A model generated the notes under the pieces. It had not been told where the DNA came from. It searched no databases and saw only the letters and a program-made list of their open reading frames with translations. Of a stretch of DNA of 64,000 bases, positions 1-63,922 are shown one piece after another. The position numbers and the translations under genes were made by a program. Numbering within the stretch: position 1 is the stretch's first letter; each line of letters opens with the position of its first letter. This DNA is from a bacterium (GTDB taxonomy: Bacteria; CAIWAD01): contig JAUIFJ010000017.1 in NCBI GenBank assembly GCA_030429345.1, positions 28,828-92,827 of the forward strand. The letters run 5' to 3'.

Positions 1-1553
1 TCCACTTCCTGCAGGTACCACAGCGGGAAGGTGTCGTTGTCCCCGTTGGTGAAGAGGATCGCGTTCTCCTCCAGCATCTCGAGGGCATTGTGGGCATAGT
101 CCCAGGCCACGTAGTTGCCGCTGCGGTCGTGTTCGTGATACCCGCTGAGCGTCATCCAGCCCGGCACCAGCAGCAGGAGCGCCGCCAGCAGGCCCAGGCC
201 CGCCGGTCGGCCCAGGCTGTCGCGCACGCGGCGCAGCAGCCAGGTCGCCCCGTAGCCGACCCAGAGCGCGGCGGCGAAGAAGCTGCCCACGTAGCTGTAG
301 TCGCGCTCGCGGGGCTGCGGGTCGGGCTGGTTGAGATACAACACGATGGCATAGCCCGTCAGGAAGAAGAGCGCGAAGATGCAGAGGCCCCGCCGCCAGT
401 CCTCGCGGAACTGGCTCCAGGCGCCGAGCGCGGCCAGCAGGAAGGGCAGCCCCAGCGACTTGGTAAAGGCGACGCCTGTGTCCGCTGCGCGACCGAGCAG
501 GTTCCAGCCCAGGTAGCGGTTGTACATGTGCTGCACCTGGTATTCCCAGAAAGGCGCCTTGCGGTTGAAGTACTGTTCGACAAAGCCCGCGCTCAAGCCG
601 TACTGTTCCCGGCTCAGGTAGCGGATCAGCGCGCCCAGGGTTTCGGGATCGTTCTCGTCCAGGGGCGGATTGAGCCCGCTGCGGATCAGGATCAGCAGGT
701 AGGACAGGTAGCCCAGCAGCACCAGGAAGGTCGCCGCGCTGCCCAGGCTGAGCCAGCGCAGGCCGGAACGCAGGCCGTATACATAGGCCCCGGCCAGCCC
801 CAGGAAGAGCGCCGGCACGACCCAGCCACCCATGGCATTGACGAGCCGGGGAAAGTAGAGCACCACGCCCGGGTAGACGGGCAGCACGCTGAGCATGCAG
901 AGCCCCAGGAAGAGCAGCCGCCGCGGCAGGGGGTCGTCGGGGCGCAGGTGGAAATAGATCACCATGAAGACCATCGGCAGGGCGAGCACGTTGAGCAGGT
1001 GCACGCCGATGGCCAGGCCGATCAGGTAGAAGATCAACAGCAGGATGCGCGTGCCGTCGCCCTGGCCCTCCTCGACCCGCTTGTGCCACACGAAGGCCAG
1101 CCAGACCACCAGCGCCGTGAAGAGCATGCTGATGGCGTATACTTCGGCCTCGACGGCGTTGAACCAGAAGCTGTCCATGGCCATGCAGCACAGCGCGCCG
1201 ATGGCCGCCCCGCCGATCTCGGCCACTCCCATCTCGCTGCGCTTCATGCGGTAGGCCAGCAGGTGGATCACGATCAGGTAGGCCAGCATCACGCAGAGCG
1301 CGCTGGAGAGCACGCTGATGAAGTTGACCCGCGCCCCGATGTCGGCGAAAAAGGGCACCATGGTGAAGGCGCGGCCGAGCAGCAGGTAGAAGGGCGCGCC
1401 CGGCGGATGGGGCACGGACAAGGTCTTCGAGCTGGCGATAAACTCGCCACAGTCCCAGAAACTGGTGGTCGGCGCCATGGTCAGCGTGTAGAGGGTCAGG
1501 GCCATCAGGAAGATCAGGCCCGCGGCCAGGCGGTGTCGCCGTTCAAAGTCCAT
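1..1553 (-). CDS. DUF2723 (TMEM260-like) polytopic membrane protein, 3' end outside window
   Basis: The frame opens at an ATG at 1553-1551 and runs off the left edge; about 517 codons are visible with no stop. The protein is strongly hydrophobic. A first membrane segment near residues 10-28 is followed by the motif FWDCGEFIASS and then PHPPGAPFYLLLGR, the signature of the DUF2723 family, which is common in Bacteroidetes and relatives and is related to the eukaryotic O-mannosyltransferase TMEM260. About ten further membrane segments alternate with short loops, and a soluble stretch containing TNGDNDTFPLWYLQE begins near the window edge, as expected for the family's C-terminal part. A glycosyltransferase role is inferred from the family only. 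The start follows a GGTGGA-like ribosome site. The gene diverges from the small gene at 1677. Confidence 0.85.
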   Translation of the reverse strand, partial: MDFERRHRLAAGLIFLMALTLYTLTMAPTTSFWDCGEFIASSKTLSVPHPPGAPFYLLLGRAFTMVPFFADIGARVNFISVLSSALCVMLAYLIVIHLLAYRMKRSEMGVAEIGGAAIGALCCMAMDSFWFNAVEAEVYAISMLFTALVVWLAFVWHKRVEEGQGDGTRILLLIFYLIGLAIGVHLLNVLALPMVFMVIYFHLRPDDPLPRRLLFLGLCMLSVLPVYPGVVLYFPRLVNAMGGWVVPALFLGLAGAYVYGLRSGLRWLSLGSAATFLVLLGYLSYLLILIRSGLNPPLDENDPETLGALIRYLSREQYGLSAGFVEQYFNRKAPFWEYQVQHMYNRYLGWNLLGRAADTGVAFTKSLGLPFLLAALGAWSQFREDWRRGLCIFALFFLTGYAIVLYLNQPDPQPRERDYSYVGSFFAAALWVGYGATWLLRRVRDSLGRPAGLGLLAALLLLVPGWMTLSGYHEHDRSGNYVAWDYAHNALEMLEENAILFTNGDNDTFPLWYLQEV

Positions 1554-1676
1554 CGAAGTGTCCACCGTTTCCGTGTTTCGAATGCATGGCAGGATCCCGC
1601 CGGAAAAATGCACCTTGCTTCCGGCGCGGAACCCGGATCGCTGTTCCGGGTTCCTCAAGGTATGAAGGAAGACGCG

Positions 1677-1928
1677 ATGCCCCGCACATACGCCCGCATG
1701 GTTCCGATTGCGGACCTGGAAAACCCTCTCGAGGCGGATCTGCTAAGCGCCCTGCTGGAGGAACTCTGCGTGGCCCACCGCATTCGCAGTTTCGCCGACA
1801 GCGCCTACGGCCACATCCCGATCTTCGAAGGCCGCGGCGCCTGGGGCCGGGTCTACGCCGAAGAGTCCCGCAGGGACATCATCCACCGAACCCTGGAAAG
1901 CATCCGAAGAAAACACGAGGAAAGGTAA
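1677..1928 (+). CDS. small DUF2007-like protein (83 aa)
   Basis: The start ATG at 1677 has an AAGGAAG ribosome site 6-7 bases upstream; an in-frame ATG at 1662 lacks one. The 83-residue product has the layout of the DUF2007 'putative signal transducing protein' family: a short strand and helix (ADLENPLEADLLSALLEE), a central segment (SFADSAYGHIPIFEGRG), then a strand and helix (WGRVYAEESRRDIIHRTLES). The function of that family is not established. No signal peptide or membrane segment is visible. The gene stands alone between two minus-strand units. The family match is by pattern only and could be wrong at this length. Confidence 0.6.
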   Translation: MPRTYARMVPIADLENPLEADLLSALLEELCVAHRIRSFADSAYGHIPIFEGRGAWGRVYAEESRRDIIHRTLESIRRKHEER

Positions 1929-2023
1929 AGGAACGATTCCACCCGCAACCATCCCTATCACGCAACCGCCTCACTGCACCAAAAACCCATCGCACTTCCA
2001 CACACTCACTTCATCCTTCATCC

Positions 2024-3759: not shown

Positions 3760-5036
3760 GGCAGCTCCGCCACCCACTGCGGCGAGTGGCCTTCCCCGGC
3801 CAGCAGCTGGCGTTCGCCGCCGCCGTCGATGAAGATGATCCACAGCCGGCCCTCGCGGCTGTATACGAGCTGGCTGCCGTCCGGCGACCAGCAGGGATCG
3901 AAATGGTTGCCCGGCGCGCTGGTCAGGCGGCGCGCGTCGCTGCCGTCGGGCCGCATGATGCAGAGCTGGTAGCCCTTGCGCTCCCGTGTGACAAAAGCGA
4001 TCCATTCCCCGTCGGGCGACCAGCTGGGGCAGTCGTTGGAATAGCCGAACCAGCTGATGCGCCTGTGCTCCAGTCCGTCGACCGTGCAGCGGTAGATCTG
4101 CAGGCCGCCGGCGCGGTCGCTGCAGTAGACCAGGTGCCGCGAATCCGGCGACCAGGAAGGCGAGGTGTCGATGCCGCGGTCGAAGGTCAACCGGCGCTCG
4201 CGGCGCTCGAAGGCCTTGTCTCCCGCGGGCACCAGGTAGAGGTCTGTGTTGCCCTGGCGGGTGCTGGCGCAGGCGATCCACTGCCCGTCCGGCGACCAGG
4301 CCGCCGCGGCGTCCGATTCCGGATGCTCGACCAGGGGCACGGCGCGCCCGCCGGAATGCAGGGGCAGCAGGAAGAGGTCGGCCCCGCTCTGCTCGCGGAC
4401 GGCGCCGTATACGAGCTCCCCGCCGTCGGGCGACAGGCTGGGCGAGACCTTGGTGCTCGGAGTGCTTGTAAGACGACGCAGGGGATCGCCGAAGAGGGAG
4501 GTGGCGAAAAGGTTCCGTCCCTCGCTTTCGCTGCGCACGAAGACAATGCGGCTGAAGACCAGCGAGGGCCTGCCGGTGAGCAGCTGCAGCACCTCGTGAC
4601 ACAGGCTGTCGGCCGTCGCCTCCGGCCGGGCGCCCAGGGTCTTCTCGAAGCGGGCGTAGTGCAGGCTGTCCCCCAGGTCGCGCAGGCCGATCCAGGCCCG
4701 GCGGCCCGTGCTGTCGGCGCGCAGGCCGCCCTCGAGCACCGTGATCGCTCCCCACTGGCCCTCGGGAGCCGGCGAGGCCGGGGTGGCCGTGGTGTCGACG
4801 GCCACCGAATCGAGGATCGTCAGGGCGGCGCTGTAGACCAGGCCGCGCCGCAGGCGCTCGCGCAGCCGGTTCTCCTCGCCCTGCGCCGCAGGCCAGGCGA
4901 AATGGAGTGCCGGACGGAAGTAGGGGCTGGCGCTGATCTCGATCACCACTTCCGGGATTTCCGGACGGCCGCGCTGGGCGAAGGCCGCGTGGCAGAGCAT
5001 CAGCAGACAGAGCATGGAAGAGAACAGTCGCGCCAT
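3756..5036 (-). CDS. tolB: TolB beta-propeller periplasmic protein
   Basis: TolB is the periplasmic partner of Pal and TolA. The 426 residues start with a signal peptide (MARLFSSMLCLLMLCHAAFA), followed by the TolB N-terminal alpha/beta domain to about residue 170. A six-bladed propeller follows, whose blades carry the WSPDG signature: SPSLSPDGGELVYG, AAWSPDGQWIACAS, PSWSPDSRHLVYCSD, PSWSPDGEWIAFVT and PCWSPDGSQLVYSREG. It lies 10 bases after the TolA/TonB-like gene, and its TGA overlaps the GTG of the cation efflux gene. The length is typical. Confidence 0.95.
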   Translation of the reverse strand: MARLFSSMLCLLMLCHAAFAQRGRPEIPEVVIEISASPYFRPALHFAWPAAQGEENRLRERLRRGLVYSAALTILDSVAVDTTATPASPAPEGQWGAITVLEGGLRADSTGRRAWIGLRDLGDSLHYARFEKTLGARPEATADSLCHEVLQLLTGRPSLVFSRIVFVRSESEGRNLFATSLFGDPLRRLTSTPSTKVSPSLSPDGGELVYGAVREQSGADLFLLPLHSGGRAVPLVEHPESDAAAAWSPDGQWIACASTRQGNTDLYLVPAGDKAFERRERRLTFDRGIDTSPSWSPDSRHLVYCSDRAGGLQIYRCTVDGLEHRRISWFGYSNDCPSWSPDGEWIAFVTRERKGYQLCIMRPDGSDARRLTSAPGNHFDPCWSPDGSQLVYSREGRLWIIFIDGGGERQLLAGEGHSPQWVAELP

Positions 5037-5826: not shown

Positions 5827-6254
5827 CGCTCCTCCCGGCGCTCCCGGGCAGGATCCGCCTGCCGTGTCACCATGCCCACGTCGACGATTCCCGCTGCGCG
5901 CACCTCGTCGAGCACGCGGATCACGCGGCCATAGGGGCTCTGCTCGTCGGCTTCGATGTATACGGGCGCCTTCTCCCCGGCCAGCCCCTGGCGCCAGTCC
6001 TGCAGGTAGCGCGGCAGATGCTCGATCTCCAGGTCGCGGCCTTCCACGCTCAGCCGGCCGTCGCGGGCCAGGCGGATGCTGAGGCCATCCGTGGGCGCGC
6101 TGACGGCGCTCTGCGCGGAGGGCAGGCCGACCTCGATGGCCTGGCGCAGCACCGGAGCGGTGATCATGAAGATCACCAGGAGCACGAGGAAGACGTCGAC
6201 CAGCGGTGTCACGTTGATCTCCGACAGGGGGCCGCGTCCCTCCGGGAGTTTCAT
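5823..6254 (-). CDS. tolR: TolR/ExbD family stator protein
   Basis: The 143-residue inner-membrane protein forms the proton-driven motor with TolQ. It has one N-terminal membrane helix ([16 protein letters not shown]) preceded by EINVTPLVD, whose aspartate is the family's proton-path residue, and a periplasmic ExbD/TolR domain containing [20 protein letters not shown]. The ATG overlaps the tolQ stop (ATGA) and its own stop overlaps the next GTG. The length is typical. Confidence 0.95.
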
Positions 6255-6895: not shown

Positions 6896-7501
6896 CTAGT
6901 CCAGGTCTTCGGGGCGGAACTCGCAGCGGCGGTTCTTGGCCCAGATGCGCTCGCCCTGCCCCAGGGCCACCGGCCGGGTCTTGCCGTAGCTGATCGTGCG
7001 CAGCCGCTCCTCGCCGACGCCCAGCCGCACCAGGTAGTCGCGCACCGTGTCCGCCCGCCGATCGCCGAGGGCGAAGTTGTAGCTGTCGCTGCCGTTCTGG
7101 TCGCAGTGTCCCTCGATGACCAGCTTCACTGCCGGGTGCTCGCGCAGCAGCAGGGCGTGCTCTTCCAGGGTGTTGCGCGCGTCCGGCCGCAGGTGATGCT
7201 GGTCGAAGTCGAAGTAGACCTCGTCCAGGGTCTGCAGGGTCTGCAACAGGGCCTGGCGGGCTTCCTCTTCGGCCAAGCGGGCCTGCTCCGCGGCGCGCTC
7301 TTCCTGGCGGCGCAGCTGCTCCTCGACCCGGGCCAGGCTGTCGGCCAGCGCGATGCTGTCCGCGGCCGCCTGTTCGGGACTGATCGTGTTCCGCGTCTCG
7401 TCGTCCAGCAGGCTCTGCTCGGCGGCCTTCTTGCCGCAGGCGCCCAGGGCCAGCCCGAGCAGGATCGTATACAAAACGGCTCTCAGGGTTCCGTGATTCA
7501 T
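6896..7501 (-). CDS. pal: Pal-like peptidoglycan-associated lipoprotein
   Basis: The 201 residues start with a lipoprotein signal (TILLGLALGACGKK, lipobox Cys about residue 22). A long charged, Glu/Gln/Ala-rich helical linker (about 40-100) follows, then an OmpA-type peptidoglycan-binding domain (YFDFDQHHLRPDARNTLE, LVIEGHCDQNGSDSYNFALG, RRADTVRDYL, TISYGKTRP). Pal anchors the outer membrane to the wall and binds TolB. Here it is first in the unit, before tolQ, rather than after tolB. The long coiled-coil-like linker is unusual for Pal. The ATG at 7501 lies 47 bases from the upstream oxidase gene, so a separate promoter is possible but I see no clear one. Confidence 0.9.
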   Translation of the reverse strand: MNHGTLRAVLYTILLGLALGACGKKAAEQSLLDDETRNTISPEQAAADSIALADSLARVEEQLRRQEERAAEQARLAEEEARQALLQTLQTLDEVYFDFDQHHLRPDARNTLEEHALLLREHPAVKLVIEGHCDQNGSDSYNFALGDRRADTVRDYLVRLGVGEERLRTISYGKTRPVALGQGERIWAKNRRCEFRPEDLD

Positions 7502-16948: not shown

Positions 16949-17821
16949 ATGCCCATGCCGAAGCTTGCTGGATTGCTCGGACTTTTTTGCGCCATACAGC
17001 TCTCCGCCGTCGAGAACCTGGATCTCAAGACCTTTGACGAGGGCATTCTGGACTATTTGCCGCCCGCGGCGCCCGAGGTGCAGAAAGAGGTATACGAACT
17101 GTGGTGCGAACGCCTGAAGCAGACCTACTCCAGCATCCGGCGTGAAGGTCGCCCCAATATCGGCGACTACTGGAACCTGGCGCGAGGATTCCAGACTCTT
17201 GGCGCGGACACGCATCTGGTCCGGCTGGCCTTCCTGCGCGCCAGCCAGAGCGACCCGGAAGGCTGGGCCGAGTACATGGAAATGCTGCCCCACACCTTCG
17301 ACCGGTGGATTCCCGCCGAATGGGCCGAGTGGGAACACTCCCGGCCCAATGAAGTGGTCGCGGAAGAAGTACTGGAAGAGGAGGGCGGCACAAATCCAGG
17401 CCTGCGGACGCTGCTCCGCCGCATGGACGAGGACGACAAGCGCTACCGCAAGGAGCCGGATTTTCTTGAGAACCCGCCTGCGATCGAAGCACAGCGGATC
17501 CTGGACCGGCAGAACATGGCGCGCCTGGATTCGCTGATCGCCGGGGGAGAGTACATCGGCCGTTCGCGGGTCGGTCCGGAGCTGGAACACGTGGCCTGGG
17601 CCGTGATCCAGCATTCCACCCTGCAGGACATGGAACGCTACCTGCCCGTGGTGGCAAGGGCTGTCGCACGGGACGAGCTGCACGAAACACCCCTGCGCAT
17701 GCTGATCGACCGCTGGCTGCTGCACAAGGAGGGCACCCAGGTCTTCGGCAGCCAGGAGGGGGTTCCCCTGGCGCCGAAGAACAGGCGGGAAGAACTGCGC
17801 GCGTTGTACAACCTGGAATGA
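16949..17821 (+). CDS. secreted or anchored DUF6624-like protein
   Basis: The 290 residues start at ATG 16949. A short hydrophobic N-terminus (KLAGLLGLFCAIQLSA) looks like a signal peptide. The C-terminal third has the DUF6624 pattern: NMARLDSLIAGGEYIGRSRV, HVAWAVIQHST, LPVVARAV, MLIDRWLLHKEGTQVFGSQ, in which the conserved DRxxxxxGxxQxYGxQ core is seen with small changes. The function of DUF6624 is not known. The middle (about 20-180) is Glu-rich and I do not recognise it. The gene is alone on its strand and is followed by a strong hairpin. Confidence 0.65.
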   Translation: MPMPKLAGLLGLFCAIQLSAVENLDLKTFDEGILDYLPPAAPEVQKEVYELWCERLKQTYSSIRREGRPNIGDYWNLARGFQTLGADTHLVRLAFLRASQSDPEGWAEYMEMLPHTFDRWIPAEWAEWEHSRPNEVVAEEVLEEEGGTNPGLRTLLRRMDEDDKRYRKEPDFLENPPAIEAQRILDRQNMARLDSLIAGGEYIGRSRVGPELEHVAWAVIQHSTLQDMERYLPVVARAVARDELHETPLRMLIDRWLLHKEGTQVFGSQEGVPLAPKNRREELRALYNLE

Positions 17822-19960: not shown

Positions 19961-20193
19961 GGGGGGACCTCCTGGAAGGAAATGGATCGACGGAGAACTC
20001 CCGGCGTCCTGCGGGGAGAGAGCGCGTCGCGTCAAGGGGCGAGTCCGGTTCCAGAGTCCAGGCGAGCGGGTTCAGGTGGCTTCGGTATACGGAAACTGTA
20101 ACGGAAATGTCAGGGCCAAGGTTCCCGGCTCCACGCCAGGGGAATTCGTAGCTTTCAGGGTGGGTCGCCGGCCGAGGTGGGCGGAGACCTGCT

Positions 20194-29297: not shown

Positions 29298-29312
29298 CGT
29301 ATACAATGAAAA

Positions 29313-29684
<372 letters not shown>

Positions 29685-40021: not shown

Positions 40022-40434
40022 GAGCTCCCGTCCCTTCTCTGCATGCTCCTAGGGGTGCCCCGTTCGGGGTCCTTCCGAATGTCCTGGCGATCCTCGTCCC
40101 TGCCGGGTTCGTGATCCGGTGGCCGGCAGCGATCCGCTCCGCGGATCCACTGCTCGTCCACGAGGGCGGCCACGCTGACGCCGGGCTTGCCCAGCCTCTC
40201 GCGCAGGAGGTCGAACTCCCGCAGTTCCGTGATCCGCCAGTTCCTGCCGGCCGAAGCCAGCCTCTGCAGCTCGCCCTTGCTGCGTTCCGACAGCCCGGGC
40301 GCGATGTATACGCGCGCCTGCCGAATGCGGCGCGCCCTGTTCTTCAGCGTGTCCAGTCCCAGGACCAGGGCTCCGGCGCGCCGGGCCAGCCCCAGCAGGC
40401 GCAGCAGCGCCTCCGGCGTTTCTTCGTGATCCAC
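39997..40434 (-). CDS. YlxQ-like L7Ae-family RNA-binding protein
   Basis: The 145 residues contain the L7Ae/L30e-like region at 1-95: LLGLARRAGALVLGLDTLKN, RVYIAPGLSERSKGELQRLA and GKPGVSVAALVDEQW, matching the nusA-infB-linked YlxQ proteins. The C-terminal 45 residues are charged, and the last eight codons are read through the infB start region in another frame. The usual YlxR partner is absent between nusA and this gene. The start is GTG 40434, 12 bases after the nusA stop. Confidence 0.85.
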   Translation of the reverse strand: MDHEETPEALLRLLGLARRAGALVLGLDTLKNRARRIRQARVYIAPGLSERSKGELQRLASAGRNWRITELREFDLLRERLGKPGVSVAALVDEQWIRGADRCRPPDHEPGRDEDRQDIRKDPERGTPRSMQRRDGSSCRKANSN

Positions 40435-42015: not shown

Positions 42016-42492
42016 CTACCAGTTCAGCTTGTATACGGCGTCCACCAGCATTGCGCGGGGAATCGTCCTCTCGCCTTCCGGGGCGGCGAGGGACAGGGTC
42101 CTCTCGTCCACCGCCTGCAGGCGGCCTTCGCACTTGTGTTCCAGCAGGCCCTCCGGGCCTTCCTCGCGCCAGCGCAGGCGCAGGTCATGGCCGACGGCCT
42201 TGCGGAACTGGCGCTCGCTCTTCAACGGGCGGGTCAGCCCCGGGGAGCAGACCTCCAGCCGGTAGCGGAAGGGCACCAGGTCCTCCTGGTCCAGCAGGGC
42301 TCCGATGCTGCGCGACAAGTGCCCCAGCTGATCCACCCCGATGCCGCGATCCGTGTCGACCAGGAAACGGATCACGCGGCCCTTGCCGTCCCCGGTCAAC
42401 TCGATGTCGACCAGCCAGGGACTGTCTTCCTGCTCGGCGCCCGGCAGGAGTTCCTCTTCCACCAGGCTGCGAATCTGCGCCAGATCCAGCAC
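42016..42492 (-). CDS. rimP: ribosome maturation factor RimP
   Basis: The 158-residue 30S assembly factor matches RimP through LVDIELTGDGKGRVIRFLVD, GIGVDQLGHLSRSIGALLD and YRLEVCSPGLTRPLKSERQF. The start is GTG 42492 with GGAGG four bases upstream; the GGAGG directly follows the T-run of an intrinsic terminator. It is the first gene of rimP-nusA-ylxQ-infB-rbfA-truB-ribF. The frame is open through the terminator, but the extra residues would be hairpin-encoded and are unlikely. Confidence 0.94.
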   Translation of the reverse strand: MLDLAQIRSLVEEELLPGAEQEDSPWLVDIELTGDGKGRVIRFLVDTDRGIGVDQLGHLSRSIGALLDQEDLVPFRYRLEVCSPGLTRPLKSERQFRKAVGHDLRLRWREEGPEGLLEHKCEGRLQAVDERTLSLAAPEGERTIPRAMLVDAVYKLNW

Positions 42493-46852: not shown

Positions 46853-48124
46853 CTACAACGCGGCAGTGTCACTCAGCCGCTTGTTGTATCTCATCCACTG
46901 CCGCAGGCTCCCCCCGAGACGCGCCAGCATGCCGCGAGGCTGGGACTTGCCGGCGGGCACCTGGGACTGCTCCATCCGGGCCGCTCCCAGCGCCGCTGTC
47001 CAGCTTTCCGGCTCCATGCTCTCCTCGACCCCGATCACCTTCTCGGGCAGGCCGACACGTACCGGCAGGCCCAGGCGTTCGACAGCGAGTTCCGGCAATC
47101 CCGCGAGGCGGGCTCCGCCTCCCGTGAGGACGATTCCCGCACCCAGCAGGCGATGATACCCGCTCGCCTGCAGGCGGCTCTCGACCCAGTCCAGGATCTC
47201 CTCGACCCGCATCTGGACGATCTGGCAAAGCTGGCTGCGGCTGATCTCCTCGCCGTGTCCGCCTCCCATGGTGCCGACGCTGAAGCGCTCGTCGCGGCGG
47301 ATCAGCTTCTGGCTGCAGCAGCCCCAGCGGCGCTTGACCTCCTCGGACTCGCTATGCGGCGTACGGAGCGCCATGGTGATGTCCCGTGTGATGTTCTCGC
47401 CGCCGATGCCGCACACGGCCACCGTCCGGAGTCGTCCTGCCTGGTATACCGCCAGGTCGGTGGTTCCGCCGCCGATGTCGAGCAGGGCCACGCCCAGGTC
47501 GCGCTCGTCGGGACGCAGGGTGATTTCCGCCGCCCCCAGGATGCCCAGGCCCATGCCCTCGACCGACAGGCCCGCCCGCTCCACGCAGCGCCCCAGGTTC
47601 TGGGTCGCCGTTACGGGACAGCTGACGAGCATCACGCGCCCTTCCAGGCGCAGCCCGTTGATGCCGACCGGATTGCGGATGCCGGGAATCCCGTCCAGGG
47701 TGAAATCCTGCGGGATCACGTGGAGGTAGCGCCGGTCGATGGCGAGGGCCTCTTCCTTGCGCGCGTGCTCGATCACCGTGCGAAGGTGTTCGGGCCGCAC
47801 CAGGCTGGAGGCCGTATCACGAGGGTTCCGCGTGATGTCGATCGCCGCGCGGCGCTGCTGGCATTCCACCTGCTCGCTGGTCATCGCCACGCGCAGGGAG
47901 TCGATCGGCCTCCCCGCGCTGTCCTCCGCCTGCTGCACGGCCTCCTCGACCGCGGCGATGGTCTCGTCCACATTGATCGGCTGGCCGCGGCTCATGCCCG
48001 AGCAGGGAGCGAGGCCGGTTCCCAGCACCTTGAGCACGCCGTCCTCCAGCTGCTCGACCAGCACGGCCTTGATCGTCGTCGTGCCCAGGTCGAGCACGCA
48101 GCGCATACGCCGTCGTACAGCCAT
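46853..48124 (-). CDS. FtsA paralogue next to ftsZ (FtsA2)
   Basis: The 423-residue actin-like ATPase has phosphate-1 VLDLGTTTIKAVLVEQ, a 1C/SHS2-type insert about 85-165 (VAMTSEQVECQQRRAAIDIT, VIPQDFTLDGIPGIRNPVG), phosphate-2 ALLDIGGGTTDLAVY and adenosine motif IVLTGGGARLAGLP. The C-terminus MLARLGGSLRQWMRYNK is a good amphipathic membrane-targeting helix, followed by a 10-residue tail. The adenosine motif is closer to canonical FtsA than in its neighbour. It begins one base after the stop of the other ftsA, with GGAGG in the end of that gene. Confidence 0.9.
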   Translation of the reverse strand: MAVRRRMRCVLDLGTTTIKAVLVEQLEDGVLKVLGTGLAPCSGMSRGQPINVDETIAAVEEAVQQAEDSAGRPIDSLRVAMTSEQVECQQRRAAIDITRNPRDTASSLVRPEHLRTVIEHARKEEALAIDRRYLHVIPQDFTLDGIPGIRNPVGINGLRLEGRVMLVSCPVTATQNLGRCVERAGLSVEGMGLGILGAAEITLRPDERDLGVALLDIGGGTTDLAVYQAGRLRTVAVCGIGGENITRDITMALRTPHSESEEVKRRWGCCSQKLIRRDERFSVGTMGGGHGEEISRSQLCQIVQMRVEEILDWVESRLQASGYHRLLGAGIVLTGGGARLAGLPELAVERLGLPVRVGLPEKVIGVEESMEPESWTAALGAARMEQSQVPAGKSQPRGMLARLGGSLRQWMRYNKRLSDTAAL

Positions 48125-49403: not shown

Positions 49404-50178
49404 GGTTCCTCCGGACGATCACCTGGTTGACGAATCGCAGATCCACTTCCGCCTCCTCTTCCAGCAGGGCCGGCCGTCCCTGGATCACGCCGGCCAACAG
49501 GGCCAGACCGTGTTCCAGGTCGTCCCGGCGCAGCAGCACGCGCGCCGGCCTCTCGCGCAATCGCAGTTCCGGCGCTTCCCCCCAGCGGAGTTCCGCCAGG
49601 CGCACGAAGATGCCCGGAGCCGTCCGCCGGATCAGCTCGACCGCAGCGGCCACTTCGGCCAATTCGTCAGGGCCGGCCTGCTCCGGGCCGCTGACCAGCG
49701 GAAGATCCAGCGCCAGTCCGCTGCCCGGCAGCGGAAGCAGCTGGCCGTCCCCGGCAAGCACCATCACCCCGCGGCTCGTGTTGCAGAGCGCGACCGCGCG
49801 ATGCTCGCGTATACGAAGCTCGATCGCGTTCGGCCACTGGCGAAGCAGCTCCGCCCCGCGGATCCAGGGCTGCGCCGCGAGGGCCAGGTCCAGGTCCTGG
49901 CGATGGATGCTTCCCAGCGGCCGCCCGATCAGCTTGTCCAGTTCGGCGCGCAGGCTCTCTTCCCGGGCGTGGAGCAATCCGCTGACGGTCCACTTCTTCA
50001 GGGGGAACAGGTCCAGCGCCTCCGCCTTGCGACCCAGTTCCGGTCCCTTGAGTGCCAGCAGGGCCGGCAGCAGCGCCAGGGCCGTCCAGCCGGCCACCGC
50101 GCCCAGGCGACGCAGTCCGCGCTGCAGGCGGCGTTGCCTCCCGTTGACCGCTTTGCCCCGTTTGCGGCTGGCGCTCAT
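49396..50178 (-). CDS. ftsQ: cell division protein FtsQ
   Basis: The 260-residue bitopic protein has a basic cytoplasmic tail (about 1-25), a membrane helix (VAGWTALALLPALLAL), a POTRA domain (KWTVSGLLHAREESLRAELD, LGSIHRQDLDLALAAQPWI) and then a beta domain (AIELRIREHRAVALCNT, LLPLPGSGLALDLPLVSG). FtsQ links early and late divisome components with FtsL. The ATG overlaps the murB stop (ATGA). Confidence 0.92.
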   Translation of the reverse strand: MSASRKRGKAVNGRQRRLQRGLRRLGAVAGWTALALLPALLALKGPELGRKAEALDLFPLKKWTVSGLLHAREESLRAELDKLIGRPLGSIHRQDLDLALAAQPWIRGAELLRQWPNAIELRIREHRAVALCNTSRGVMVLAGDGQLLPLPGSGLALDLPLVSGPEQAGPDELAEVAAAVELIRRTAPGIFVRLAELRWGEAPELRLRERPARVLLRRDDLEHGLALLAGVIQGRPALLEEEAEVDLRFVNQVIVRRNHG

Positions 50179-51086
50179 GGCCGGTGCTCCCTCTCGATGC
50201 AGCGGAACTCCTCTTCCAGGCGGACTCCGCTGTGCTCGTATACGCCTTCCTTGACCCGCTCGACGAGTTCGAGCACCTGGGCCGCCGTGCCCTCCCCGTG
50301 ATTCACGAAGAAATTCGCGTGTACGGACGAGACCTCGATGTCGCCGCAGCGCTGCCCCTTGAAGCCCGCCTCCTCGATCAGCTTGCCCGGGTAGAGTTCC
50401 GGACCCGGGCGCTTGAAAACGCTGCCGCAGGTCCATGCGCGCAGCGGCTGCGTCTCCTGGCGGTACTTCTGGCAGGCCTGTGTCCGTTCGCGGACCTGCT
50501 CCGCGGAGCCGGGGTTCATGCACAGACGGGCGAAGAGAGCCGTGCTCTCGCTCAGCGCACCGCAACGACGATAGCTGAAATCCAGTTCCTCGCTTTCGAG
50601 CCAGGAGGTCGATCCGTCCGCCTGCAGGACCTGGACGGCTTCGACCACGTTGCCCGTCTCGGAACCGTGCGCTCCGGCGTTCATGCGCAGCGCGCCGCCG
50701 AGCAGGGCCGGAATCCCCACGAGGAATTCCAGTCCGGACAAGCCTTCACGGGCAGCCCTGCGCGCCAGGCTGCCGACGGGCACCGCCGCGCCGCAATGGA
50801 TCACATGCTCGCGCACCTGCAGTTCACGGAACTCGCCGGCAAGACGGATCACGACACCGGGCAGGCCCTCGTCCGGGAAAAGCAGGTTCGACCCGTTGCC
50901 GATCAGCCACCAGGGCAGGCCCTCCTCGCGTACGCTTCCCAGGAGATCCGCCAGTTCGCCCGGGCTGCGCGGCTCGGCCAGCAGGGCCGCCGGCCCTCCG
51001 ATGCGCCAGGTGCAGCACTCGCTCAAGGGCACTTCCGTGAGACAGATCGCGGGGAAGCGCTCCCGAATTCCCTGCACCGCGCTCAT
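50175..51086 (-). CDS. murB: UDP-N-acetylenolpyruvoylglucosamine reductase
   Basis: The 303-residue FAD enzyme reduces UDP-GlcNAc-enolpyruvate to UDP-MurNAc. Motifs are WWLIGNGSNLLFPDEGLPGV, VGIPALLGGALRMNAGAHGS, CGSVFKRP (catalytic Ser) and ANFFVNHGEGTAAQVLEL (catalytic Glu region). It is of the short type II form, lacking the extra loop of E. coli MurB. murC, usually beside it, is missing. It overlaps ftsW and ftsQ by ATGA. Confidence 0.96.
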   Translation of the reverse strand: MSAVQGIRERFPAICLTEVPLSECCTWRIGGPAALLAEPRSPGELADLLGSVREEGLPWWLIGNGSNLLFPDEGLPGVVIRLAGEFRELQVREHVIHCGAAVPVGSLARRAAREGLSGLEFLVGIPALLGGALRMNAGAHGSETGNVVEAVQVLQADGSTSWLESEELDFSYRRCGALSESTALFARLCMNPGSAEQVRERTQACQKYRQETQPLRAWTCGSVFKRPGPELYPGKLIEEAGFKGQRCGDIEVSSVHANFFVNHGEGTAAQVLELVERVKEGVYEHSGVRLEEEFRCIEREHRP

Positions 51087-52201: not shown

Positions 52202-53555
52202 GGCAGATCTCCCGCACGAGCTCGTCCAGCCCCGCGCTGCGACTGCCCTTGACCAGCAGGGCATCCCCGCTGCGCAGGCCGGCCAATCGCCGCGCCGCGT
52301 CCTTGACGGTGTGACAGTACAATCCGTCTCCGCAGCCGGCTTCCCGGTAGCCGGCTAGCACTTCGCGCATCACGGGGCCGCCGATCACCAGCAGCTCGTC
52401 GACTCCCGCCCGGCAGGCCTCGCTTCCCGTGCAGCGATGCCACTCGGCCTCCCGCGGTCCCAGCTCGGCCATGTATCCGAGGGCGGCGAAACGGCGTCCC
52501 GCGACGGGAAAGGCGGCCAAGGTCGCCAGCGCGGCGCGCACGGAGGCCGGATTGGCGTTGTAGCTGTCGTCGATCACGATGCGGCCGCGATGATGGATCA
52601 CGCGCATCCTGCCGGCCACCCGGTCGGAGGGGTCCAGGGAGGCCGCCTGCAGCAGGTCCTCGTCCGACACTCCCGCCAGCAGGGCCAGGGCAGCGGCGCT
52701 GAGCCAGCATTCGGCGAAGGCGCGCCCCGGAACGGCGAGGGTGCAGTCCTCGCTGCCAATGCGGAAACGGCCCCGTGCCTGCTCGTCCAGTCCGAGCCAG
52801 CGCAGCCTCCTCCCTTCGTGTTCCAGCCCGCCCTCCATGCTGTAGCACAGCGCCTCGGGAAGGGTCTCGACCAGGGTCCTCAGGCGAATGTCGCCCGTGT
52901 TGAGCGCGACGCGTCCTCCATGCTCCGCCAGCCAGCGGAGCAGTTCCGACTTGGCGCGCAGCACCCCCTCCAGGTCGCCGAAGGCTTCCAGGTGCGCCTC
53001 GGCGATGTTCGTCACCAGGCCGGCATGCGGCGAGAGCAGCGCGCTCATGCGGGCGATCTCGCCGAAATCGCTGGCGCCCAGTTCCTGGACCCAGATCCCC
53101 GGCGCCTGCGACAGGCCATTCACCAGCGCCAGCGGCATGCCGATGGTGCTGTTCAGGTTGCCCGGGTTGCCCGCCGCGCGTTTCGGGCCCAGCATGCCCA
53201 GCAGGAGCTCCTTGCTTGTGGTCTTGCCGTTGCTCCCGGTCAGGGCGAGCACAGTCCCGGTATACTCGCAGCGCGCCTGCCGCGCCAGCTCTTCGAGCGC
53301 CTCCCGCGCGGATGGAACACGAAGGCAGCGCGGATCCGCAGCAGGCTGCTCCGTGATGGCCCCGATGGCCCCCTGCTGCAGCGCGGCGGGAATGAAGGCA
53401 TGCCCGTCTACGCGCTCGCCGGGCAGGGCGAGGAAGAGATCGCCTTCCCCCGCCTGGCGGCTGTCCAGCACCAGGGCGCGCGGCACCTGCCCCTGCCAGG
53501 AAGCGGGCGCAGCTTGTCCGAGCCGCTCGGCGATCTGCTGCAGGGAATCGATCAT
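52194..53555 (-). CDS. murF: UDP-MurNAc-tripeptide-D-Ala-D-Ala ligase
   Basis: The 453-residue Mur ligase has an N-terminal UDP-binding domain (VLDSRQAGEGDLFLALPGER), a central ATPase (LALTGSNGKTTSKELLLG, NSTIGMPLALVN, TNIAEAHLEAFG) and a C-terminal domain with IDDSYNANPASVRAAL, the MurF-specific signature. It adds D-Ala-D-Ala to the UDP-MurNAc tripeptide. It is the only Mur ligase in this cluster; murE, murD and murC are not in the window. Confidence 0.95.
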   Translation of the reverse strand: MIDSLQQIAERLGQAAPASWQGQVPRALVLDSRQAGEGDLFLALPGERVDGHAFIPAALQQGAIGAITEQPAADPRCLRVPSAREALEELARQARCEYTGTVLALTGSNGKTTSKELLLGMLGPKRAAGNPGNLNSTIGMPLALVNGLSQAPGIWVQELGASDFGEIARMSALLSPHAGLVTNIAEAHLEAFGDLEGVLRAKSELLRWLAEHGGRVALNTGDIRLRTLVETLPEALCYSMEGGLEHEGRRLRWLGLDEQARGRFRIGSEDCTLAVPGRAFAECWLSAAALALLAGVSDEDLLQAASLDPSDRVAGRMRVIHHRGRIVIDDSYNANPASVRAALATLAAFPVAGRRFAALGYMAELGPREAEWHRCTGSEACRAGVDELLVIGGPVMREVLAGYREAGCGDGLYCHTVKDAARRLAGLRSGDALLVKGSRSAGLDELVREICHG

Positions 53556-55636
53556 GGTTCGAGCACCAGTTGAATGTGCCCCTCTTCGGGCCAGGCTTCT
53601 CCGGCCCCGGGCGATTGCCGCACAACCCGCCCCTCGCCGCTCAGCTCGACAGAGGCCGTCGCCATGCTCAGGACACTCAGGGCGGCGCGCGCGTCCAGCC
53701 CCTGCAGGTTCGGCAGGCCCTCGCCCGCGCTTCCGCAGACCAGGCGCAGCTCGTCCGGGAGGCGCATGTAGACGCCTGCCGGAAGCGACTGGCTACGGAC
53801 CAACCCTTCCCCTTCCAGGTGGAGGATCTCGAGCCACTCGCGCCCCAGTCGCCTGCGGACCTCTTCGTGCTCCAGGCCGCGCAGTTCGGGCAGGTGGCGC
53901 GGGGTCCCGGGAGCGTATACGAGGGGCTGCCGGGGATCCACGCCCCGCTCGAGGGCCTGGACGCGGCGCATGGTCTCGGCGAAGAGCGGCGCGGCCACGT
54001 GGCCCCCTTCCACCTGTCCGCGCGGTGTGTCCACCAGCGCCAGGCAGACCAGGCGACGTTCCTCGCTCTCGCAGACGCCCAGGAAGCTGGCGATGTAGTC
54101 GCGGTTGGAGTAGCCTCCCTCTGGATCCACCTTCTGGGCGGTGCCGGTCTTGCCCCAGACAAGGCAGCCCGGCACACGCGCCTTCCGGCCCGTCCCCTCC
54201 TCGACGACTTCGATCAGCAGGGCCTTCAGATCCTGGATCACGGAGCGCGAGAGCACCCGTCGGATCTTGAGGCTGCCCGGAGCCCGGCTCTCCTCCAGGC
54301 CGCGGATCTCGCGGATCACATGCGGCCGATAGAGCACGCCGCCATTGGCCATGGCGCACATGGCGGCGGTCATCTGCATGCCGTTGACGGCCAGGCCCTG
54401 CCCCATGCTGATGTTGGCGTACTCGACCGGCCCCCATTCCTTCAGCTTGGGCAGCCGCCCGCGCACTTCCCCGGGAAGATCAATGCCCGTGCGCTCGCCC
54501 AGGCCGAAGCGGCGCGCCATGCGGTAGAGCTCCTCGCGCGGCAGCTCCTCCGCCAGCACCACGGTCCCGATATTCGAGGACTTGGTGAAGACCTCGCGCA
54601 CGCTCAGCGTGTCGTAGCCGCGCCGGTTGCTGTCCCGGATCGTGCGGTTGGCGACACGGTAGCGGCCGTTGTGACAGGGCACGGGGCGCTGAAGGTCCTC
54701 CAGCAGCCCGTTCTCCAGCAGGGAGGCGAAGGTGATCAGCTTCATGGTCGAGCCGGGTTCGAACTGCTCCTCGACCGGTCGTATACGGGCGTACTCGGCC
54801 TGCCAGTCGCTCATGCGGTTCGGATCGAGAGGCGGCGAGGAAGCAAGGGCGAGGACCTCGCCGTTCTCCGGATCCATGATCACCAGTTGGCCGCCGACGG
54901 CGTCGAACTGCGAGACGCTTCGGTTGAGCTCTTCCTCGGCGATGGTCTGCATGCGCTGATCGATGGTCAAACGCACTTCGGCGCCGGCGCGGGCCTCGAC
55001 CCGCGGTCGCAGGTCGTTCTCCACCGGTTTGCCGCTGGCGTTCCGCACCAGGTATTCCTTGCCCGGCGTGCCACGCAGCAGGCTGTCCATGTACATTTCC
55101 ACGCCGCCCACCGGCTGTCCGTCTCGGCGGATCGCGCCCAGCAGGTTGCCTGCCACCGTCCCGTGGGGGTAATAGCGCTGGCCCGTGCGCTCGAAGTCCA
55201 GCCCCTTCAGCCCCAGGCGCCGGATGCTGCGCCTTTCGGCCTCGCCGACGCTTTCCGCCAGCAGCACACGCCCCTCTTCCCGCTGCAGGCGGCTTCGCAG
55301 TTCGCCCGCTCCGCGATCCAGGCTGGGCGCGAGCAGGTCGGCCGCCACGCGGGGATCCCCGAGCTGGCCCGTCCGGGCATAGAGGCGGTATACACGACTG
55401 AACTCGGTCGCCAGCAGGCGCCCATCGCGATCGACGATCGAGCCGCGCACCGCCGGCAGGGGACGGCTTCCGCGGAACTGGGCGTCGGCGCGCTCGCGGT
55501 ATTCTCCGCTCCACAGGAGCTGGATCACGCCCAGCTTGAGCGCGATCAGCCCGAAGGCCAGAAGGCCCAGCACCTGCACCAGCCTGACGCGGCCGTGGTA
55601 GTGGTAGGGACTGCGGTATGGCCTTACCGCGCGCAT
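53552..55636 (-). CDS. ftsI: FtsI-like penicillin-binding protein 2/3 with PASTA domains
   Basis: The 694-residue class B PBP is the divisome transpeptidase. It has a membrane anchor (VQVLGLLAFGLIALKLGVIQ), a dimerisation/pedestal domain (RGSIVDRDGRLLATE) and a transpeptidase domain with FEPGSTMKLITF (SxxK), SSNIG (SxN) and VWGKTGTAQ (KTG). Two PASTA repeats follow at the C-terminus (about 560-694; PELRGLEHEEVRRRLG, PNLQGLDARAALSVL), as in Bacteroidetes and Gram-positive homologues and unlike E. coli. The ATG lies 13 bases inside the end of ftsL, and the stop overlaps murF by ATGA. Confidence 0.95.
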   Translation of the reverse strand: MRAVRPYRSPYHYHGRVRLVQVLGLLAFGLIALKLGVIQLLWSGEYRERADAQFRGSRPLPAVRGSIVDRDGRLLATEFSRVYRLYARTGQLGDPRVAADLLAPSLDRGAGELRSRLQREEGRVLLAESVGEAERRSIRRLGLKGLDFERTGQRYYPHGTVAGNLLGAIRRDGQPVGGVEMYMDSLLRGTPGKEYLVRNASGKPVENDLRPRVEARAGAEVRLTIDQRMQTIAEEELNRSVSQFDAVGGQLVIMDPENGEVLALASSPPLDPNRMSDWQAEYARIRPVEEQFEPGSTMKLITFASLLENGLLEDLQRPVPCHNGRYRVANRTIRDSNRRGYDTLSVREVFTKSSNIGTVVLAEELPREELYRMARRFGLGERTGIDLPGEVRGRLPKLKEWGPVEYANISMGQGLAVNGMQMTAAMCAMANGGVLYRPHVIREIRGLEESRAPGSLKIRRVLSRSVIQDLKALLIEVVEEGTGRKARVPGCLVWGKTGTAQKVDPEGGYSNRDYIASFLGVCESEERRLVCLALVDTPRGQVEGGHVAAPLFAETMRRVQALERGVDPRQPLVYAPGTPRHLPELRGLEHEEVRRRLGREWLEILHLEGEGLVRSQSLPAGVYMRLPDELRLVCGSAGEGLPNLQGLDARAALSVLSMATASVELSGEGRVVRQSPGAGEAWPEEGHIQLVLEP

Positions 55637-56957: not shown

Positions 56958-57247
56958 CAGACGAAGACTCCTGGCGGCAGGCCCAGGCGTGCGCAGCTTC
57001 TCCGCTCGCGGGGCGCCACGCCCGCGAAGCGCAGGGTGCAGTCGGGCCGCGCCTCCGCGTGCAGCTCCTTGAGCCAGCGCGAGGCTTCCCGGTCGTGGCT
57101 CACCTGGCCGAAGTCCAGTTCGAGCACGCGATCCCCCTGGGCGAGGCGAGCGACGATGAAGGACAATTGGCGGTAGGCGCCCTCGTTGAGGGCCCCTTTC
57201 AATTGGTATACGTCGCGATCCGCGCGACTGCGATGCTGAATCACCAT
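56957..57247 (-). CDS. small STAS-like protein between mraZ and rsmH
   Basis: The 96 residues have the alternating strand/helix order of a STAS domain: VYQLKGALNEGAYRQLSFIV, VLELDFGQVSHDREASRWLK, then CTLRFAGVAP. In anti-sigma-factor antagonists the loop after the LDF strand holds D-S-x-G with the phosphorylated serine; here it reads HDREAS, so that site is absent. If STAS, it is probably not a phospho-switch. mraZ and rsmH are adjacent in nearly all bacteria, so an inserted gene here is unusual. AGGAAG precedes the ATG, and its TGA overlaps the rsmH start. The fold assignment is tentative. Confidence 0.6.
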   Translation of the reverse strand: MVIQHRSRADRDVYQLKGALNEGAYRQLSFIVARLAQGDRVLELDFGQVSHDREASRWLKELHAEARPDCTLRFAGVAPRERRSCARLGLPPGVFV

Positions 57248-57256: not shown

Positions 57257-57706
57257 CTAGAGTTCCACGTCGCTCTGCTGCTCGCTGAGTATGTCCCCGC
57301 CTTCCTCGATCGCCTGCAGGTAATCCTGCGGATTCCAGATCTGGACAATGCGCTGGAACCCGGCCAGGGTGACCGTGCCGCCCTTTTCCAGGCGGGCATG
57401 GGCGATGAGGGCCGCCGGGACCTTGATCCGCCCCTGGTTGTCCACCGGACACTCGAAGACCGAGCTGACCAGGCGACGCACGAGCTGCCGGTTGGCGCGC
57501 ACCTGCATGTTGAGGCCCTGAAGGCGCTCACGCAGGAGAGCGTATTCGTCCGGGGTATACACGGCGACGCAATTCTCCACGTCGCGGGTCAGGTAGACGA
57601 TGGCCTCCTCGCCGGGGGCGAGGTCGTTCTTGAAGGGCGCAGGGATCTTGACCCGACCCTTCTGGTCCAGCGCGTAGTTGTATTCGCCCTGGAAGTACGC
57701 CATCAT
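57257..57706 (-). CDS. mraZ: transcriptional regulator MraZ
   Basis: The 149-residue protein has two SpoVT/AbrB-like half-domains: FQGEYNYALDQKGRVKIPAP and ECPVDNQGRIKVPAALIAHA, each with the DxxGR core. MraZ is a ring-shaped DNA-binding repressor of its own dcw operon. Start ATG 57706 (or the second ATG 57703) follows GGGGAA. Four spaced repeats directly upstream are candidate operators. Confidence 0.96.
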   Translation of the reverse strand: MMAYFQGEYNYALDQKGRVKIPAPFKNDLAPGEEAIVYLTRDVENCVAVYTPDEYALLRERLQGLNMQVRANRQLVRRLVSSVFECPVDNQGRIKVPAALIAHARLEKGGTVTLAGFQRIVQIWNPQDYLQAIEEGGDILSEQQSDVEL

Positions 57707-58925: not shown

Positions 58926-58968
58926 GGGTTCCTTTCCAGATTAAGCCTCTGAAAGTAGCAATGCCCGG

Positions 58969-62697: not shown

Positions 62698-62706
62698 GAT
62701 CCCTCC

Positions 62707-62751: not shown

Positions 62752-62761
62752 GGGGCGCGAT

Positions 62762-62806
62762 GAAGAACTCGCACGGAGGGCACTGAGAAGACTGAGGACA
62801 CAGAGG
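62762..62806. repeat. CTCCGTG-type dispersed repeat, copy 2 (inverted)
   Basis: GAAGAACTCGCACGGAGGGC and the following 25 bases are the reverse complement of a variant of 45342-45387, ending in CTCCGTGCGAG(T/C)TCTTC in that sense. It lies upstream of the ars promoter. Confidence 0.65.
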
Positions 62807-62882
62807 GTGTGGAACAAAAAGGCTCCGACCGCAAGAGAGCGCCCGACCAAATACCACAACCGACCGTGAAACGGCCGTGGAA

Positions 62883-62913
62883 TCCATCCCGCATGTGAAA
62901 CATGCGGGATGGA
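62883..62913. repeat. 14-bp perfect inverted repeat with GAA loop
   Basis: TCCATCCCGCATGT (62883-62896) is followed by GAA and its exact reverse complement (62900-62913). A smaller CCGT-GAA-ACGG hairpin lies about 20 bases upstream (near 62864-62874) with the same GTGAAAC centre. No T-run follows on either strand. The stretch 62814-63118 otherwise contains no gene I can support. Confidence 0.7.
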
Positions 62914-63118
62914 ATGGCGGCCCCCAAACAGGGCCACCATCTTCCGGTAGACGAACAGTCTTGTGCCCGGTTTCCCGAGTGACGCAGTCCAAGCAAGCTT
63001 GGGTATTCAGAACTCTGAATTCCCTATTCTTCTCAGTCGATACTCCCTTTCATGCCATCCTGAACTGCTCCACGCGGAAAGGGAAAGTGAATCACTTGCG
63101 CCATGAGGAGGGAATACC

Positions 63119-63922
63119 ATGCGCACACATCTGACACTTGCGACCGGTCTTCTCGTCACCAGCCTGCTGCTGGGCCTGACGGGCTGCTCCGATGACGACG
63201 AGGACGCGACGATCACGATCGCCCCTGCACACACCACGGGCACGACCGGCGCCGACGGCACGGTGACCCTGGACCTGGCGGAGTACGACATCGCCGTGAC
63301 GGTCGAAGCCGACGGCAACGGAGCGGAGGGCGTCTCCGTCGAGCTCTACCATGGCTCTTCCCTGGCCCTGGTCTGGGCCAGCATCGAAGGGTACTACAAC
63401 AATTTCGCGCTGCTCAACCTCGCCAGCGTGAACGGCGACCAGGCGCTGACCATCGAACTGGTCGAGCAGGGCATCGAGTACTACGAATGGAACGTGGATC
63501 CGGCCCTGATCAGCCTGCTCTACTCCGACGCCTCCTTCGTCGAGCACTGCGGCGAGGGCACCCTGGAGGATCTCTTCGGCCAGGCCGGCTCGCTGGGGGA
63601 TTTCGTCTTCTTCCGTGTATACGGCGGCGGCGCCGCGCTGCGCGAGGGCAACATCTCCGTCGGATTCGACATCGATGGCCTGTCCTACGCGGCCTTCCAG
63701 GAGCTGGCCTTCGGGCTCTTCGGATTCATTCCGCAGGATATCTTCGAATACTGCTACTACACCCTGGAACTGGAGGGCACGACCTTCGTGCTGCCGACCC
63801 TGCACATCGGGACCATCGTGCAGCAGGGCACGCCCTACGCCTACAAGTTCATCCTGACCTGGGGCGAGAACCCCCCGTCAAGTCCAAAACTGTGTGCAAA
63901 TTCAACTGGCCTTCCGAAGTGA
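63119..63922 (+). pseudogene. lipoprotein gene disrupted by an IS256-family element
   Basis: A frame of 267 codons begins with a lipoprotein signal (TSLLLGLTGCSDDDED, lipobox Cys 23). A beta-rich domain (VTLDLAEYDIAVTVEADGNG, GVSVELYHGSSLALVW) and a second half with aromatic/Gly-rich segments (FVFFRVYGGGAALREGNISV, LHIGTIVQQGTPYAYKFILT) follow. I do not recognise a family. From about 63877 the sequence is transposon end, so the last 15 or so residues (SSPKLCANSTGLPK) are not native. The native C-terminus is displaced beyond the window. GAGGAGGG precedes the ATG. Confidence 0.75.

What the first reader, a model, noticed from the sequence alone, without database searches (positions are those of the whole stretch)
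777..63622. GTATAC is over-represented and drives rare-codon choice in every reading phase
I count about 30 GTATAC sites by eye, spread through the window. Examples are 777, 1137, 3861, 4407, 5958, 7467, 17090, 18920, 19272, 19758, 29488, 30309, 33328, 40306, 42031, 44146, 44185, 44490, 47444, 49809, 50238, 53260, 53915, 54781, 55388, 57206, 57555 and 63617. At roughly 64% G+C a zero-order estimate is about seven, and the similar-composition palindrome GATATC appears only about five times. All three codon phases occur. Val-Tyr is often written GTA TAC although GTA is otherwise rare. Tyr becomes TAT when flanked as G-TAT-AC (pnp, ftsI-type genes, murF). In ftsQ and ftsI, Arg-Ile-Arg is CGT ATA CGN, using the rare ATA. 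That pattern fits selection on the DNA word (methylation site, nucleoid or segregation protein site, or similar), not codon bias.
Basis: partly seen in the sequence, partly recalled or inferred. Interest (0 to 1): 0.85.

Follow-up and report, generated by a model that had tools for sequence, protein, structure and literature searches.

The report
Highly repeated palindrome GTATAC, genome-wide
One six-letter DNA palindrome, GTATAC, is written about 1,800 times across this uncultured bacterium's genome, often enough to override normal codon choice and probably to add Val-Tyr pairs to its proteins, which points to an unidentified protein that recognises this word, as in the still unexplained HIP1 palindrome of cyanobacteria.

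Summary
The window has 30 GTATAC sites and its genome has 1,793. Three same-family genomes have 16-23 each. GTATAC is the most enriched of all 2,080 hexamers in 1.24 Mb of coding DNA (517 sites vs 120 in synonymous-codon shuffles), over-represented in every phase and ~10-fold over a Markov estimate in intergenic DNA. Where a codon can complete GTATAC, rare GTA, ATA and TAT rise to 34%, 44% and 76% (otherwise about 2-4%, 2-4% and 20-30%). Val-Tyr dipeptides exceed shuffles by 286, matching the 287 Val-Tyr sites; the sister genome has no excess. The real unit is the 8-bp palindrome YGTATACR; with both flanks wrong there is no enrichment. Among 386 genomes this one is the outlier (1,118 vs 25 for the reversed word). 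Spacing looks random. Codon bias is excluded. The best reading is a HIP1-like highly iterated palindrome outside cyanobacteria, maintained by a word-recognising protein, most plausibly a solitary DNA methyltransferase. Two such core genes were found, but neither specificity is known, and both have orthologues in sister genomes where the word is rare, so the mechanism is inferred.

The parts
777..782 (.). GTATAC, Val-Tyr, flanks C-A
1137..1142 (.). GTATAC, Val-Tyr, flanks C-T
3861..3866 (.). GTATAC, Val-Tyr, flanks T-G
4407..4412 (.). GTATAC, Val-Tyr, flanks C-G
5958..5963 (.). GTATAC, Val-Tyr, flanks T-G
7467..7472 (.). GTATAC, Leu-Tyr-Thr (phase 2), flanks C-A
17090..17095 (.). GTATAC, Val-Tyr, flanks G-G
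18920..18925 (.). GTATAC, Val-Tyr, flanks C-G
19272..19277 (.). GTATAC, Ser-Tyr-Thr (phase 2), flanks C-G
19758..19763 (.). GTATAC, Arg-Tyr-Thr (phase 2), flanks C-C
20085..20090 (.).
29299..29304 (.).
29488..29493 (.). GTATAC, Lys-Tyr-Thr (phase 2), flanks C-T
30309..30314 (.). GTATAC, Val-Tyr, flanks G-G
33328..33333 (.). GTATAC in pnp, Pro-Tyr-Thr (phase 2), flanks C-G
40306..40311 (.). GTATAC, Val-Tyr, flanks T-G
42031..42036 (.). GTATAC, Val-Tyr, flanks T-G
44146..44151 (.). GTATAC, Val-Tyr, flanks C-A
44185..44190 (.). GTATAC, Val-Tyr, flanks C-G
44490..44495 (.). GTATAC, Ser-Tyr-Thr (phase 2), flanks C-G
47444..47449 (.). GTATAC, Val-Tyr, in an FtsA-like gene, flanks G-C
49809..49814 (.). 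GTATAC in the FtsQ-type gene, Arg-Ile-Arg CGT ATA CGC (phase 1)
50238..50243 (.). GTATAC in murB, Val-Tyr
53260..53265 (.). GTATAC in a Mur ligase, Glu-Tyr-Thr (phase 2), flanks G-T
53915..53920 (.). GTATAC in the FtsI-type gene, Val-Tyr
54781..54786 (.). GTATAC in the FtsI-type gene, Arg-Ile-Arg CGT ATA CGA (phase 1)
55388..55393 (.). GTATAC in the FtsI-type gene, Val-Tyr
57206..57211 (.). GTATAC, Val-Tyr, flanks G-G
57555..57560 (.). GTATAC, Val-Tyr-Thr (phase 2), flanks G-A
63617..63622 (.). GTATAC, Val-Tyr, flanks T-G

Best explanation
SHOWN: GTATAC, more exactly the 8-bp palindrome YGTATACR, is under genome-wide pressure at the DNA level in this genome. Once formed, the word is kept or favoured wherever protein function tolerates it, in all codon phases and between genes, and the dipeptide composition suggests it has been gained partly through amino-acid changes. 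INFERRED: it is a HIP1-like highly iterated palindrome. A resident sequence-specific protein recognises the 8-bp palindrome, most plausibly a solitary DNA methyltransferase (adenine methylation, GTAT-m6A-C, is the known chemistry on this word in Clostridium). Methylated sites are then favoured by a process linked to the mark, either methyl-directed repair that preserves newly made sites or selection for the mark as a strand or self label. Candidates are a gamma-class TaqI/BseCI-like N6-adenine MTase with no restriction gene beside it (G000:C13:23233-25041) and a small beta-class MTase (C64:75265-76086).
For: 1,793 sites vs 16-23 in three same-family genomes. Top of 2,080 hexamers under synonymous shuffle. 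Flank dependence: 8-11x with both Y and R flanks, 2-3x with one as a rule, about 1x with none, as expected of a palindrome-binding dimer or enzyme. Intergenic sites 21 vs 2.0 expected. Codon switches only in contexts that complete the word. Val-Tyr excess 970 vs 684 +/- 28 here, 189 vs 195 in G001. The word is also unusual in the other direction in the sister genome G001: lowest hexamer ratio, 1 vs 15.2, which hints at a recogniser present in the family. Solitary core MTases exist. Solitary GTATAC m6A methylation is documented in C. septicum and C. isatidis (PMC8696124, PMC12311949). In cyanobacteria every highly over-represented palindrome comes with an MTase able to methylate it, and the same MTase classes usually go with site avoidance (PMC4390886).
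Against: Both candidate MTases have orthologues in G001-G003, where the word is rare, and the target-recognition half of the gamma enzyme is as conserved as its catalytic half, so neither explains the gain in this genus by itself. Neither specificity is known. More distant homologues in other phyla do not go with enrichment. Random (Poisson) spacing does not show the gap filling expected if regular marks were selected. Not all MTase families were searched, and part of the genome was not read.
Confidence: 0.45

Rival explanations
1. DNA uptake sequence: competence machinery prefers DNA with YGTATACR, and transformation drives the word to high copy, as in Pasteurellaceae and Neisseriaceae.
For: Copy number and density (1 per 2.4 kb) are of the uptake-sequence kind. 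The apparent dipeptide-level effect and the lower density in low-GC islands and mobile contigs are typical of a drive acting on shared, vertically inherited DNA. ComEC is present.
Against: Uptake sequences are described as non-palindromic (PMC1939737), while this word is a perfect palindrome with symmetric flanks. They favour non-coding DNA (PMC1939737), while here intergenic density is lower than genic density (0.27 vs 0.49 per kb). ComEC is also present in G001 and G002, which lack the word.
Confidence: 0.15
2. Binding site of an abundant chromosome-organising protein or global regulator with an 8-bp palindromic target.
For: 8-bp palindrome with flank preference; spread over the genome.
Against: Not concentrated in intergenic or promoter DNA, no clustering and no macrodomain seen. 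Such proteins rarely need amino-acid changes to create sites. No candidate protein identified.
Confidence: 0.17
3. Mutation or repair bias alone: an enzyme converts near-miss words into GTATAC (a Vsr-like short-patch repair) without methylation or function.
For: Amino-acid-level effect without obvious benefit; Poisson spacing as expected of independent per-site events.
Against: Within-genome paralogue differences come from more than one neighbour, in rough proportion to supply (4 GTCTAC, 2 GTACAC). No neighbour word is specifically drained relative to G001, apart from a non-exceptional loss of GTAAAC. One specific conversion does not fit. The numbers are small.
Confidence: 0.15
4. Codon usage, codon-pair or amino-acid bias that happens to contain GTATAC.
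For: Val-Tyr and Tyr-Thr are the commonest hosts.
Against: Synonymous and dicodon nulls fail. GTA is 34% of Val codons before TAC but 2% before TAT. Intergenic enrichment is 10x. The sister genome uses GTATAC for 0 of 189 Val-Tyr.
Confidence: 0.01

Closest known systems
HIP1 (GCGATCGC) and alternate HIPs (GGCGCC in Calothrix PCC 7103, rCCGGy in Oscillatoria PCC 10802, GCsGC in Cyanothece PCC 7822), Elhai 2015 PMC4390886
   Same: Short perfect palindrome, by far the most over-represented word, in genes and between genes, density of hundreds per Mb, lineage-specific gain while relatives are low, solitary MTases in the genome.
   Different: Not cyanobacterial. TA-rich core in a 64-67% G+C genome, whereas HIPs are GC-rich. 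A documented same-specificity MTase is lacking here. Density is 423 per Mb (264 per Mb for YGTATACR), at or below the low end of HIPs (about 500-2500 per Mb).
Solitary GTATAC m6A methyltransferases (M.Csp7534III of Clostridium septicum, also C. isatidis)
   Same: Same DNA word; solitary type II MTase.
   Different: There the word is an ordinary 460-576 counts (both strands) per about 3 Mb low-GC genome and is not described as enriched; no protein sequence was available to compare.
Orphan GTWWAC MTase motif of Ralstonia (PMC11460718)
   Same: Includes GTATAC; m6A; solitary MTase.
   Different: Only 392 GTWWAC sites in the Ralstonia genome. In this genome GTAAAC and GTTAAC are depleted while GTATAC is enriched, and that depletion is shared by many TTA/TAA words.
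DNA uptake sequences (Haemophilus USS, Neisseria DUS)
   Same: Copy number; probable effect on protein composition; under-represented in islands.
   Different: Those are non-palindromic and 9-12 bp long; here intergenic DNA is not preferred.

Membership tests
Highly iterated palindrome (HIP) | Short palindrome far above expectation, the top word of the genome | tested here: met
   Rank 1 of 2,080 hexamers; 1,793 copies
Highly iterated palindrome (HIP) | Present in coding and non-coding DNA, all frames | tested here: met
Highly iterated palindrome (HIP) | Resident MTase able to methylate the word | not testable with these tools
   Solitary gamma and beta MTases found; specificity unknown
Highly iterated palindrome (HIP) | Found in cyanobacteria | tested here: not met
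   Core genes have no close named relative; best pnp match is about 50% identical, to delta/alphaproteobacterial and myxococcal MAGs. Hence 'HIP-like', not HIP1
DNA uptake sequence | Non-palindromic, asymmetric receptor-bound word | tested here: not met
   Perfect palindrome with symmetric flanks
DNA uptake sequence | Preferential uptake of DNA with the word | not testable with these tools
   needs a culture
Restriction-modification recognition site | Site avoided in host genome | tested here: not met
   Enriched 4.3x in G000; low in G001
Replication-oriented motifs (Chi, KOPS) | Non-palindromic, strand-biased along replichores | tested here: not met
   Palindrome, so no orientation; origin/terminus gradient not testable on 92 contigs
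REP or dispersed repeat | Longer conserved unit around the word | tested here: not met
   No information beyond position -1 (weak at -2) in the flanks

The most novel reading that the evidence does not exclude
An independently evolved highly iterated palindrome in a deep-branching non-cyanobacterial lineage, in which one word sits at opposite extremes in sister genera (most enriched hexamer here, lowest-ratio hexamer in the G001 sample), driven by a family-conserved recogniser whose consequence flipped from avoidance to accumulation and now alters the proteome (added Val-Tyr pairs).
Probability: 0.3. Interest if true: 0.8.

Novelty: new variant of a known kind. Interest (0 to 1): 0.62.

Why it matters
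Why cyanobacteria carry HIP1 has been open since 1995. A recent gain in a different phylum, with a TA-rich word in a GC-rich genome and a sister genus with almost none, is an independent replicate that separates HIP biology from photosynthesis and cyanobacterial phylogeny. It makes the methyltransferase link directly testable: methylation sequencing of one organism and expression of a handful of MTases would decide it. It also appears to be a clear case of a DNA word shaping protein sequence.

Tried and rejected
(1) G043 looked like a second case by GTATAC/CATATG counts (1037 vs 77), but sequence shows GTATAC at only 1.28x expectation; the control word is rare there. Rejected. (2) GTGTAC-to-GTATAC conversion: GTGTAC is scarce in Val-Tyr here, but about equally so in G001. 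Rejected. (3) GTWWAC recognition: GTAAAC and GTTAAC are depleted here, but so are many TTA/TAA words. Not supported. (4) Distant homologues of the candidate MTases against word frequency across 386 genomes: no link with enrichment. The two beta-MTase homologues in G298 and G011 sit at the low end (3rd and 8th percentile), too few to count. (5) Orthologue alignments to infer ancestral states: sister genus too distant (median 49% protein identity). Val-Tyr conservation 4/23 for sites vs 15/48 for other Val-Tyr, not significant. (6) A named taxon: pnp gave only about 50% matches. (7) The strong G001 avoidance rests on a 400 kb sample (1 site; whole genome 23), and by the GTATAC/CATATG-type ratio G001 is unremarkable (26th percentile), so I treat it as suggestive. 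(9) No structure prediction was tried on the MTases.
Full report
What is there. The window contains 30 GTATAC sites at 66.9% G+C; the zero-order expectation is 5.4. Thirty of its 36 TATA tetramers are inside GTATAC. The window is G000:C61:28828-92827 of a 4.24 Mb, 92-contig genome. Genome-wide there are 1,793 sites, against 128 for the same-composition reversed word CATATG. The three other genomes of the family have 23, 16 and 21. The phylum-level group holds only five genomes in this collection.

Statistics. In 424 kb of the genome GTATAC is 35 times a first-order Markov estimate (199 vs 5.6), the top hexamer by first-, second- and third-order models. In 1.24 Mb of called genes it is first of 2,080 hexamers under within-gene synonymous shuffling: 517 observed, 120 expected (that script counts a palindrome once per strand, so halve its figures). 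In a 424 kb sample the phase-specific figures are 99 vs 12.9, 15 vs 1.05 and 74 vs 24.8. Intergenic DNA has 21 vs 2.0. The codon-choice test is the clearest. GTA is 34% of Val codons before TAC but 2% before TAT. ATA is 44% of Ile codons between xGT and Cxx but 2-4% elsewhere. TAT is 76% of Tyr codons between xxG and ACx but 20-30% elsewhere. A dicodon Markov model still under-predicts phases 1 and 2 two-fold. Codon bias, tRNA supply and codon-pair effects are therefore excluded as the cause.

The unit. Flanking bases show a symmetric preference: C 51% and T 32% at -1, with almost no information further out. Under the synonymous null, YGTATACR words are 8-11 times over-represented. Words with one right flank are mostly 2-3 times over, one of them not at all (0.6x). 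Words with neither right flank are not enriched (AGTATACT, GGTATACC; 1.1-1.5x on 1-4 sites). Thus the recognised unit is an 8-bp degenerate palindrome; 1,118 of the 1,793 sites have it. In a survey of 386 genomes across the domain, this genome is the outlier with 1,118 vs 25 for the reversed control. The highest raw count elsewhere is 632 (vs 571 control, a 7.3 Mb genome), and the best ratio in 150 background genomes is about 18.

Distribution. Gaps between sites on long contigs fit an exponential law (231 gaps, mean 2.1 kb, KS p = 0.25), with no excess of close pairs and no gap filling. Sites are uniform along genes. Density falls in low-GC tiles (2.4 per 10 kb below 58% G+C, 4.3-5.0 above 64%) and in mobile or phage-like contigs (0.18 per kb; one 20-kb stretch has none). 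This fits slow accumulation in vertically inherited DNA.

Effect on proteins. Val-Tyr dipeptides number 970 against 684 +/- 28 in shuffled proteins, an excess of 286, while 287 Val-Tyr are written GTATAC. In the sister genome Val-Tyr is 189 vs 195, and none of those 189 uses GTATAC. The simplest reading is that many sites arose by amino-acid replacement. Orthologue alignments point the same way but are too few to be significant. Differences between close paralogues inside the genome come from GTCTAC (4) and GTACAC (2), with direction unknown.

Sister genus. In 363 kb of G001 genes GTATAC has the lowest observed/expected ratio of 1,875 hexamers (1 vs 15.2 sites). Genome-wide it has 23 in 3.6 Mb, so the sample is on the low side and the ratio nearer 0.17 by scaling. 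By comparison with its reversed control G001 is unremarkable. The contrast between the genera is certain; active avoidance in G001 is suggestive.

Candidate recognisers. Pfam searches for DNA MTases (PF01555, PF02384, PF00145, PF02086, PF07669) and family scans give: several type I systems; an MmeI-like type IIG enzyme in a low-GC island; a cytosine R-M pair (L146:8855-10962); repeated cytosine MTases on three near-identical mobile contigs; phage-like D12 MTases; and two solitary enzymes in GC-rich core DNA. The first solitary enzyme is a 603-aa gamma-class N6-adenine MTase (TaqI, BseCI and CamA are its solved relatives) in a 20-kb stretch with 15 GTATAC sites, between a transporter and a DEAD helicase. 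The second is a 274-aa beta-class MTase beside a MoxR/TPR operon. Both have orthologues in G001-G003 at about 45% and 54-59%. The gamma enzyme's C-terminal recognition half is as conserved as its catalytic half, so a swapped specificity is not indicated. Solitary GTATAC m6A MTases exist in Clostridium (PMC8696124, PMC12311949), which shows that the chemistry is available, not that these enzymes do it.

Interpretation. The closest known phenomenon is the cyanobacterial HIP (PMC4390886). There too, MTase carriers usually avoid the site and exceptional strains accumulate it, and every accumulated palindrome had an MTase able to methylate it. Elhai's methyl-directed repair ratchet would give word-level gain without function; selection for a mark would give gap filling, which is not seen here. 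I commit to a methyltransferase-linked HIP-like element at 0.45, with uptake sequence, architectural protein and pure repair bias as live rivals. What is shown is word-level pressure, its 8-bp unit, its lineage specificity and its association with codon choice and Val-Tyr excess. What is inferred is the recogniser and the driving process.

Noticed in passing
window 46853-48106 and 48126-49403: Two FtsA-like genes lie side by side between ftsZ and ftsQ (both match PF14450 and PF02491).
   Followed up: no
L058, L062 (G000:C62, C86); L059 (G001:C87): Phage-like contigs encode a D12-type adenine MTase domain in one long reading frame with what looks like a phage structural or protease region; near-identical copies on two contigs of G000, relatives in G001.
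   Followed up: partly
L050, L052, L054 (G000:C57, C43, C26): Three contigs about 91% identical in DNA carry near-identical 305-aa cytosine MTases among many short genes; they look like a family of related mobile elements.
   Followed up: partly
G000, 1.24 Mb of genes: Secondary words are also above the synonymous null here but not in G001, e.g. GTGATA (2.25x vs 0.59x) and GATCAC (1.84x vs 0.75x); unexplained.
   Followed up: no
G043: CATATG is scarce relative to GTATAC, and palindromes such as GGGCCC, GGCGCC, CGGCCG, CCTAGG and AGCGCT are absent from 400 kb; the genome has 23 PF01555 MTase matches, which suggests heavy restriction-modification.
   Followed up: no
window 26203-28830, 24224-25855: Long genes with lamin-tail and FG-GAP domains, typical of secreted or surface proteins.
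   Followed up: no
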